Assembly: GCF_019393635.1 (NCBI RefSeq)
Contig: NC_057863.1
Coordinates: 621,855,791-621,919,790 of the forward strand
Direction of reading: 5' to 3'
DNA length: 64,000 bases
Origin: Dromiciops gliroides
Taxonomy: Eukaryota; Chordata; Mammalia; Microbiotheria; Microbiotheriidae
The notes under the pieces: generated by a model
Databases searched by the model: none
The model's input: only the letters and a program-made list of their open reading frames with translations
Told to the model about the DNA's origin: nothing
Shown: positions 21,189 through 22,469 of the stretch, piece by piece
Layout: each line of letters opens with the position of its first letter
Numbering within the stretch: the stretch's first letter is position 1
Translations under genes and position numbers: made by a program

Positions 21189-22469
21189 GCCACAGCTGCC
21201 TTTGTTGCCAAAATTCTTCTTAAAGAGATAGTACCTCGTTTTGGCCCACCAGCCTGCATTGATTCTGACAAAGGCACACATTTCACTGATTCGATTTTAT
21301 TCCAAATCTACTCTTTCTTGGGAGTAACTCCAAAATTCCACACGCCCTACCATCCACAAAGTTCAGGCCAAGTTGAACGTATGAATAAAGAGCTTAAGAG
21401 TATGATTGGCAAATTATGTACTGAAACCCATTTGAAATGGCCTGATATTCTACCATTGGCATTATTCTATCTATGCAGTAGACCAAGAGGAGAACTTCAT
21501 ATATCTCCTTATGAAATGCTTTTTGGTCACCCTCCTATCCAAGCTAAAACTTTTTCCCCAGTTTATACATCACTGGTGGGAGGTGATACTTCTGTTGCCT
21601 CCTATATACAGGAATTACAGACCAGGCTACGTGAACTCCATGAGGCAGGAGCCGTGGTCCAGGTAGGCCCATTAGACTTTTCATTGCACAGCCTCAACCC
21701 AGGAGATAAAATATATGTAAAGAATTTTCAGAGAACCAGTGGAACCCAACCTGCCTGGGAAGGACCTTTTCAGGTATTATTGACAACTCCTACTGCCATT
21801 AAAATTGGTGAAAAAGACTCATGGATTCATTTCTCTCATGTAAAGCCTGCACCATTCATAGGTGAAGAGATTTCAGATAGACCTGAGGTAGACGCTAAAG
21901 AGCTAAAAACCCTAATGATAGCAACTGTTAAAGAGCAAAGAGAGTTCAGAGGAAATAGGCAGTTCCCATTTGATAATCCCACTGATCAGTTAAATGCTTT
22001 GGGACTCAGTCTTCATATAGTATCAGGAGATGGAAATTGCCTTTTTAGGGCTTTAGCAGACCAGCTAGAAGGTCACTGTAGAAATCATCTCAGACACAGA
22101 CAAGAAGCTGCTTCTTACATGATTAACCATAGACAAGAGTTTGAGTCTTTTAGAGTAAATGACTCCTCTTTTGAAGAATATGTTGACAAATTAAAGAAAT
22201 TTGGAAAGTGGGGAGGAAATGATACAATTGTAGCATTTGCTAAGCAGCATCAGCAGAATGTGGTAGTTCATCAGTTAAATCAGCCCTTATTGAAAATCAG
22301 TGGCACAGACAAAACTGATGCTAGAGAACTCCACATTTTCTACCATAAAGAACATTATGACAGCATTAGAAAGATCAATGACAATTCAGAAACCCCTGCC
22401 ACTTTGGCATGCAGAGAATTGGGGAACCAGTTAAAACAATGTGGCATACCCCAAATTCTAGCAGCTTAA
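21189..22469 (+). CDS. Integrase C-terminal half fused in frame to an OTUD3-like OTU deubiquitinase domain
   Basis: The longest open frame in the window: no stop from 21189 to TAA 22467-22469 (426 codons). The first half is retroviral integrase: Asp at 21267 (SDKGTHF), Glu at 21375 (GQVERMN), 35 residues apart, then the C-terminal DNA-binding part with WEGPFQVLLTTPTA and HFSHVKPAP. After a linker of about 35 codons (21865-21975) an OTU cysteine protease begins: LNALGLSLHIVSGDGNCLF. The active site is complete: Asp 22029-22031, Cys 22038-22040, His 22353-22355 (KEHYDS). EGHCRNHLRHRQEAA, VVVHQLNQPL and INDNSETPA match the OTU of cellular OTUD3, a Lys-linkage-cleaving deubiquitinase, better than any other family I know. 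There are no introns, so the source was a spliced transcript. The rest of OTUD3 beyond the OTU domain is absent. An in-frame ATG at 21915 could start a 184-codon protein of linker plus OTU alone. Confidence 0.9.
   Translation, partial: ATAAFVAKILLKEIVPRFGPPACIDSDKGTHFTDSILFQIYSFLGVTPKFHTPYHPQSSGQVERMNKELKSMIGKLCTETHLKWPDILPLALFYLCSRPRGELHISPYEMLFGHPPIQAKTFSPVYTSLVGGDTSVASYIQELQTRLRELHEAGAVVQVGPLDFSLHSLNPGDKIYVKNFQRTSGTQPAWEGPFQVLLTTPTAIKIGEKDSWIHFSHVKPAPFIGEEISDRPEVDAKELKTLMIATVKEQREFRGNRQFPFDNPTDQLNALGLSLHIVSGDGNCLFRALADQLEGHCRNHLRHRQEAASYMINHRQEFESFRVNDSSFEEYVDKLKKFGKWGGNDTIVAFAKQHQQNVVVHQLNQPLLKISGTDKTDARELHIFYHKEHYDSIRKINDNSETPATLACRELGNQLKQCGIPQILAA

What the first reader, a model, noticed from the sequence alone, without database searches (positions are those of the whole stretch)
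21189..22469. ERV that carries an OTUD3-like OTU deubiquitinase domain in place of an envelope gene
Seen: one open frame runs from the integrase catalytic core (Asp 21267, Glu 21375) through the integrase C-terminus into a full OTU domain, followed by the 3' non-coding region and LTR with no envelope-like frame. Known: OTU proteases remove ubiquitin with an Asp-Cys-His site. All three are present here (22029, 22038, 22353), and stretches such as EGHCRNHLRHRQEAA and INDNSETPA resemble OTUD3. Inferred: a gammaretrovirus-like element captured a spliced OTUD3 mRNA. Retroviral gene capture is known from acute transforming viruses, but I know of no described endogenous retrovirus with a captured deubiquitinase. 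Such a protein could protect viral or host proteins from ubiquitin-dependent degradation, or dampen innate signalling.
Basis: partly seen in the sequence, partly recalled or inferred. Interest (0 to 1): 0.95.

Follow-up and report, generated by a model that had tools for sequence, protein, structure and literature searches.

The report
Retrovirus family with captured deubiquitinase
A young, many-copy family of retrovirus-like elements in this (probably marsupial) genome carries the enzyme part of a host gene that removes ubiquitin tags (OTUD3), fused to the end of its own replication protein and with no envelope gene found; the copy in this window is an older, broken member.

Summary
Frame 21189-22469 joins a gammaretrovirus-type integrase to a full OTU domain with Asp22029, Cys22038 and His22353. 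The OTU derives from OTUD3: 64-65% identical to the host gene and continuous across three of its introns, so it came from spliced mRNA. Against host OTUD3, pS is 0.85 and pN 0.21. The fusion is not private. The genome gave 1652 first-look candidates; 150 were scored, and in 104 of them the OTU lies in an open frame of 1392 aa. Gag and pol share a frame split by one TGA in 5 of 5 pieces, so OTU is probably the C-terminus of a Gag-Pol readthrough protein. Four of five full LTR pairs are identical, the fifth differs by one base in length, and all five have 4-bp duplications. No env was found. Correction: the LTR right behind the OTU frame is a nested solo LTR (22927-23525); the true 3' LTR is 24761-25316 and the 5' LTR is missing. 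ERVs carrying host mRNA in place of env are known (crocodilian nectin3). My searches showed none with a deubiquitinase. Activity and function are inferred.

The parts
17237..25316 (+). Window copy of the OTU-bearing ERV, 5'-truncated (no 5' LTR or leader)
   Evidence: BLASTN against pieces of other copies (L011, L012, L043): homology from 17237 to 25316
17237..18282 (+). gag (part), ends at a TGA in frame with pol
   Evidence: PF02093 Gag_p30 2.3e-22 on 17188-18279; stop codon
18304..18909 (+). protease fragment
   Evidence: PF00077 1.7e-10
18770..19558 (+). reverse transcriptase fragment, nearest MLV-type RT
   Evidence: PF00078 2.9e-25; PDB best 177 bits MLV-type, next group 94 bits
19562..21060 (+). 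RNase H and integrase zinc-binding fragments, broken by stops and frame changes
   Evidence: PF17919, PF00075, PF17921 on three pieces; frames
21189..21980 (+). integrase core end (Asp 21267, Glu 21375), MLV-type C-terminal domain and linker
   Evidence: PF00665 and PF18697
21981..22406 (+). OTU domain derived from OTUD3; Asp 22029, Cys 22038, His 22353; Lys129 equivalent 22197
22407..22469 (+). C-terminal tail without OTUD3 likeness, and stop
   Evidence: alignment with host OTUD3
22470..24760 (+). spacer without a recognised env, ends in a purine tract before the 3' LTR
   Evidence: Pfam scan of the same region in L012; sequence
22927..23525 (.). nested solo LTR of another element, private to this copy; 4-bp duplication CATT (22923-22926, 23526-23529)
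24761..25316 (+). true 3' LTR (TG...CA), AATAAA at 25199
   Evidence: BLASTN to the LTR of L012

Best explanation
The window holds a broken, 5'-truncated copy of a young, high-copy, class I (gamma-like) ERV family without a recognisable envelope gene. An ancestor took the OTU part of a spliced OTUD3 message into the 3' end of pol. Shown: OTU is fused in frame behind integrase, its triad is kept, and it ends the pol frame, which follows gag in the same frame after one TGA. Inferred: readthrough of that TGA makes a minor Gag-Pol-OTU product that goes into the particle with the other Pol enzymes. There OTU works as a built-in deubiquitinase, most likely protecting the element's own Gag-Pol, integrase or integration complex from ubiquitin-dependent loss during its intracellular cycle; weakening of RIG-I/MDA5/MAVS signalling, which OTUD3 also does, is a second and compatible role. 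My odds: anatomy and OTUD3 origin 0.93; active enzyme 0.75; self-protection as the main role 0.5; immune dampening as the main role 0.25.
For: Junction and open frame in 20 of 20 picked loci; 104 of 150 scored rows with a 1392-aa frame (hand count). Triad motifs and the Lys129 equivalent in 20 of 20. Gag and pol in one frame split by TGA in 5 of 5 pieces. OTU 92 of 142 identical to host OTUD3 (L024), pS 0.85 against pN 0.21. Codon positions 1/2/3 differ at 42/25/81 of 142; in 4 sets of 1000 neutral simulations at most 0.001 kept 64.8% identity and at most 0.009 had no stop. Continuous across three host introns. LTR pairs near identical with 4-bp duplications in five copies. OTUD3 is active through Cys76 and removes Lys63 chains from MAVS, RIG-I and MDA5 (PMC10566363, passages).
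Against: No activity, expression or particle data. Selection within the family is not shown: OTU fixed differences 5 silent and 6 replacement against singletons 21 and 52, P 0.30; with integrase added, P 0.03. Silent-site saturation may partly predate capture if the donor was a distant species. In the loci nearest the window copy, 25 of 30 keep both catalytic motifs, so old copies lose them. The codon at 21915 is ATG in 1 of 20 recent and 14 of 30 window-near loci (ACG in 17 and 13), so a separate OTU start exists in some copies. The single-sequence structure model is useless (pLDDT 38). The UBA domain of OTUD3 is absent.
Confidence: 0.8

Rival explanations
1. OTU serves mainly to block innate sensing (RIG-I, MDA5, MAVS), not to protect the element's own proteins.
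For: OTUD3 removes Lys63 chains from MAVS, RIG-I and MDA5; its Lys129 matters for MAVS, and the equivalent lysine is kept in 20 of 20 copies.
Against: As a Pol C-terminus it would be scarce and tied to particles; no immune data. OTUD3 also promotes DNA-triggered cGAS signalling, which would work against an element with a DNA stage.
Confidence: 0.25
2. OTU acts at integration or repair next to integrase, as proposed for Ginger1 transposases.
For: Same order, integrase then OTU, arose separately in Ginger1; its authors suggest a role in transposition or repair (PMC2836005, passages).
Against: No direct evidence; it overlaps with protection of integrase and cannot be told apart by sequence.
Confidence: 0.2
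3. OTU is a passenger: it replaced env, env was not needed, and the domain has no use.
For: Within-family selection test not significant for OTU alone; env-less families spread without captured genes (MEBrv 3).
Against: pS 0.85 against pN 0.21 to the host gene, no stop in 142 codons, triad kept.
Confidence: 0.12
4. The OTU came from another mobile element (Ginger1 or Helitron type), not from OTUD3.
For: Such elements carry OTU domains.
Against: 191 bits to OTUD3 against 40 for the next OTU; path 0.53 to OTUD3 in the tree.
Confidence: 0.02
5. Assembly join or a private retrocopy insertion.
For: Nothing found; retrocopies are common in mammals (general knowledge).
Against: Same in-frame junction in 20 of 20 picked loci; LTRs with target duplications in five copies.
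Confidence: 0.01

Closest known systems
Crocodilian ERVs with captured host mRNA: nectin3 in CrocERV31, KIT-ligand in CrocERV29 (PMC4299795, passages)
   Same: Host mRNA taken into an ERV; nectin3 replaces env; purifying selection reported; several copies.
   Different: Captured genes are a surface protein and a ligand, not a ubiquitin enzyme. Here the captured domain continues the pol frame, and copies are many and very young.
Ginger1 DNA transposons (PMC2836005, passages)
   Same: Integrase-type protein with GPY/F domain followed by a C-terminal OTU protease domain.
   Different: Cut-and-paste elements with inverted repeats and no RT or LTR; not an OTUD3 capture as far as the passages say.
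Helitron and herpesvirus-type deubiquitinase domains (PMC9741609, passages)
   Same: Mobile elements and viruses that carry their own deubiquitinase-like domains; helitron and viral OTU activity noted there as untested.
   Different: Different replication and different domain parents.
MEBrv 3, an env-less ERV of Dasyuridae (PMC11334065, section 10 read)
   Same: Env-less marsupial ERV with identical LTRs and recent spread.
   Different: Betaretrovirus-like pol, degraded env remnant; the word OTU does not occur in that paper.
Acute transforming retroviruses (general knowledge, no call)
   Same: Cellular message captured into a viral frame.
   Different: They usually lose pol function and need a helper; here the pol frame is kept and OTU is added behind it.

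Membership tests
Class I (gamma-like) ERV | Gag p30 and MLV-type integrase C-terminal domain | tested here: met
   PF02093 2.3e-22; PF18697 6.5e-16
Class I (gamma-like) ERV | RT nearest to gammaretroviruses | tested here: met
   172-177 bits to MLV-type chains, next group 94; PDB only, no RT tree made
Class I (gamma-like) ERV | gag and pol in one frame split by a stop codon | tested here: met
   TGA in 5 of 5 pieces
Class I (gamma-like) ERV | 4-bp target duplication | tested here: met
   five copies with full LTR pairs
Class I (gamma-like) ERV | envelope gene | tested here: not met
   no env family in 10 of 12 spacer frames of L012
OTUD3 | OTU domain nearest OTUD3, with Asp-Cys-His | tested here: met
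OTUD3 | UBA domain | tested here: not met
   element likeness ends after the OTU, before host exon 5
OTUD3 | deubiquitinase activity | not testable with these tools
   needs an enzyme assay
Ginger1 DNA transposon | integrase followed by OTU | tested here: met
Ginger1 DNA transposon | terminal inverted repeats, no RT or LTR | tested here: not met
   RT and LTRs present
ERV with captured host mRNA (crocodilian nectin3 type) | intronless copy of a host coding sequence inside an ERV | tested here: met
ERV with captured host mRNA (crocodilian nectin3 type) | purifying selection on the captured frame | tested here: inconclusive
   strong against the host gene, not significant within the family
MEBrv 3 | betaretrovirus-like RT | tested here: not met
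   RT nearest MLV-type in PDB; no direct comparison with MEBrv 3 letters

The most novel reading that the evidence does not exclude
A retroelement lineage whose Gag-Pol polyprotein has gained a resident, particle-borne deubiquitinase: OTU was added as one more Pol enzyme behind integrase, and it allowed or drove a recent env-less expansion within this genome.
Probability: 0.6. Interest if true: 0.92.

Novelty: new variant of a known kind. Interest (0 to 1): 0.82.

Why it matters
Deubiquitinase-like domains turn up in unrelated mobile elements and viruses (Ginger1, Helitrons, herpesvirus tegument), and for helitron and viral OTU domains activity was noted as untested (PMC9741609). Here the parent gene is known, its host copy lies in the same genome, and the element is young and abundant, so the question of what a mobile element gains from a deubiquitinase becomes directly testable. 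It would also be a case of retroviral gene capture that adds an enzyme to Pol while keeping the rest of Pol, and it predicts that ubiquitin limits env-less retroelements in germ cells.

Tried and rejected
Env in the spacer: none recognised. LTR pair inside the window: none, the 5' LTR is missing; my first comparison stopped at 24200 and could not see the true 3' LTR. An own start for OTU at the ATG 21915: I first took it for private to the window; one search shows ATG in 1 of 20 recent and 14 of 30 window-near loci, ACG in 17 and 13, so it looks like repeated loss of a CpG and is not the rule. Structure from one sequence: pLDDT 38, so no fold search was made. Viral contigs: 3 pattern matches, no relative. 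Donor species from sites where host and human OTUD3 differ: undecided, judged by eye. Pseudogene or assembly join: rejected.

Not answered: the search for sister integrases without OTU (PF18697), so the state before capture is unknown and sequences with env at this place were not looked for by any answered call. The protein database was switched off. No eukaryote genome other than the own one could be searched.

Full report
1. The observation. Frame 21189-22469 on the + strand is open over 426 codons. It holds the end of an integrase core with Asp 21267 and Glu 21375, the MLV-type integrase C-terminal domain (PF18697, 6.5e-16) and an OTU domain (PF02338, 3.9e-13). The OTU part alone scores 191 bits against human OTUD3 (4bou); the next chain, OTUD5, scores 40. 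Asp, Cys and His lie at 22029, 22038 and 22353.

2. The element. Upstream pieces match Gag_p30, protease, RT, RNase H and H2C2. The RT is nearest MLV-type enzymes in PDB, 172-177 bits against 94 for the next group. The window copy is broken: its pol lies in pieces separated by stops and frame changes, family homology starts at 17237, and the 5' LTR and leader are missing.

3. Correction of the 3' end. The window carries 599 bp at 22927-23525, TG to CA, flanked by CATT. L005-L008 lack it, and it was found in none of the 29 other loci. It is a solo LTR of another element. The element's own 3' LTR is 24761-25316, behind a purine tract.

4. A family, not a private join. The own genome (3.30 Gb, 17 contigs) gave 1652 first-look candidates for PF02338; 150 were scored, all over the cut-off. 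The first four rows are other OTU genes, two of them clearly OTUD1-like and OTUD5-like. By hand count 104 of the 150 rows lie in a 1392-aa frame. I read L005-L008 and 20 more rows picked from the + strand; the other 122 were not read. All 20 are open from integrase to the same stop after OTU. Counting L024 itself, 13 of 20 are identical to L024 over 951 bp, 5 differ by one base, L028 by 7 and L023 by 14. A DNA search with the window OTU gave 1636 candidates, 40 scored. The candidate numbers are not confirmed copy numbers.

5. Age. Flanks of 7 copies were fetched. Five gave full LTR pairs: four identical (498, 498, 500 and 537 bp) and one of 541 and 540 bp with a single gap, all between 4-bp duplications. 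A sixth matched over 490 bp without difference but with differing inner repeats, so it was not used for dating; the seventh gave no pair in the stretches fetched. These insertions are very recent. The window copy is older: its OTU DNA is 98% identical at best to another scored copy.

6. How OTU would be made. In 5 of 5 pieces gag and pol share a frame and are split by one TGA, the layout of readthrough gammaretroviruses (general knowledge). At the place of the window's ATG 21915, 17 of 20 recent copies have ACG, 2 AAG and 1 ATG; of the 30 loci nearest the window, 14 have ATG and 13 ACG. So OTU has as a rule no start of its own and is most simply the last domain of Gag-Pol. Translation, packaging and any cut from integrase are inferred.

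7. Origin. Host OTUD3 was found on the same contig, about 7.6 Mb from the window element. Exons 1-4 code the OTU domain, with GT/AG borders at the introns. The element crosses the three introns without a break. Host and human OTUD3 share 135 of 143 residues; L024 shares 92 of 142 with the host, the window copy 91 of 142. A small tree puts the element OTUs next to OTUD3 (path 0.53) and far from OTUD1, OTUD5 and YOD1; only one of 8 inner branches is strongly supported, because of long branches. The UBA domain was not taken. The donor species cannot be told.

8. Constraint. Against host OTUD3, pS is 0.83-0.88 and pN 0.21-0.22 in four copies. Codon positions 1, 2 and 3 differ at 42, 25 and 81 of 142. 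In neutral simulations from the host sequence (4 distances, 1000 runs each) the share keeping 64.8% identity was at most 0.001 and the share without a stop at most 0.009. Part of the silent divergence may predate capture if the donor was a distant species. Within the family the signal is weak: OTU fixed differences 5 silent and 6 replacement, singletons 21 and 52, P 0.30; with integrase added P 0.03. In the 30 loci nearest the window OTU (the window copy included) OTU was whole in 26, the integrase part in 14 and both catalytic motifs were kept in 25; these loci were chosen by OTU likeness, so the contrast is biased.

9. Function. OTUD3 prefers Lys6 and Lys63 chains, depends on Cys76 and removes Lys63 chains from MAVS, RIG-I and MDA5; Lys129 acetylation matters for MAVS; it also promotes cGAS signalling (PMC10566363, passages; PMC9906624, passages). 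The GDGNCLF, EHYDS and LKKFGKWGGND stretches are kept in 20 of 20 recent copies. My first choice is protection of the element's own Gag-Pol or integration complex, because OTU sits behind integrase in a scarce polyprotein. Immune dampening and a role at integration are the main rivals. Ginger1 transposases have the same order, integrase then OTU (PMC2836005, passages).

10. What is known. ERVs with host mRNA in the env position are on record in crocodilians (PMC4299795, passages). My ten searches of an open-licence library listed no paper on an ERV with a captured deubiquitinase; most papers of subscription journals are not in it. The Dasyuridae ERV survey does not contain the word OTU; its env-less family is betaretrovirus-like (section read). 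I call this a new variant of a known kind.

11. Limits. No other eukaryote genome was searchable, and the query for sister integrases got no answer.

Noticed in passing
22927-23525: Solo LTR of a different element, with CATT duplication, nested in the window copy of the OTU-ERV.
   Followed up: partly
56762-57574 (-): Two frames with alpha/beta hydrolase (PF07859) matches; looks like a host arylacetamide-deacetylase-like gene (name recalled).
   Followed up: no
40139-40430: Stretch 82% identical over 293 bp to the element's 3' spacer (24484-24757): perhaps an older relative.
   Followed up: no
L002 and L003 (C4, about 30 kb apart): Two OTU-bearing sequences 86% identical to each other over 443 bp in opposite orientation, distantly like OTUD1; perhaps a marsupial duplicate.
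   Followed up: no
L015, L016, L019-L022: LTRs of some copies carry a 39-bp-spaced inner repeat whose number varies between copies.
   Followed up: no
21903-21932 and the same place in L023: Integrase tail (TLKIATV in L023) resembles, by recall, the BET-binding tail motif of MLV integrase, placed just before OTU.
   Followed up: no
L011 2321-2345: Primer-binding stretch TTTGGCGACCCCGAAGGGACC after the 5' LTR; by recall nearest a tRNA-Arg type.
   Followed up: no
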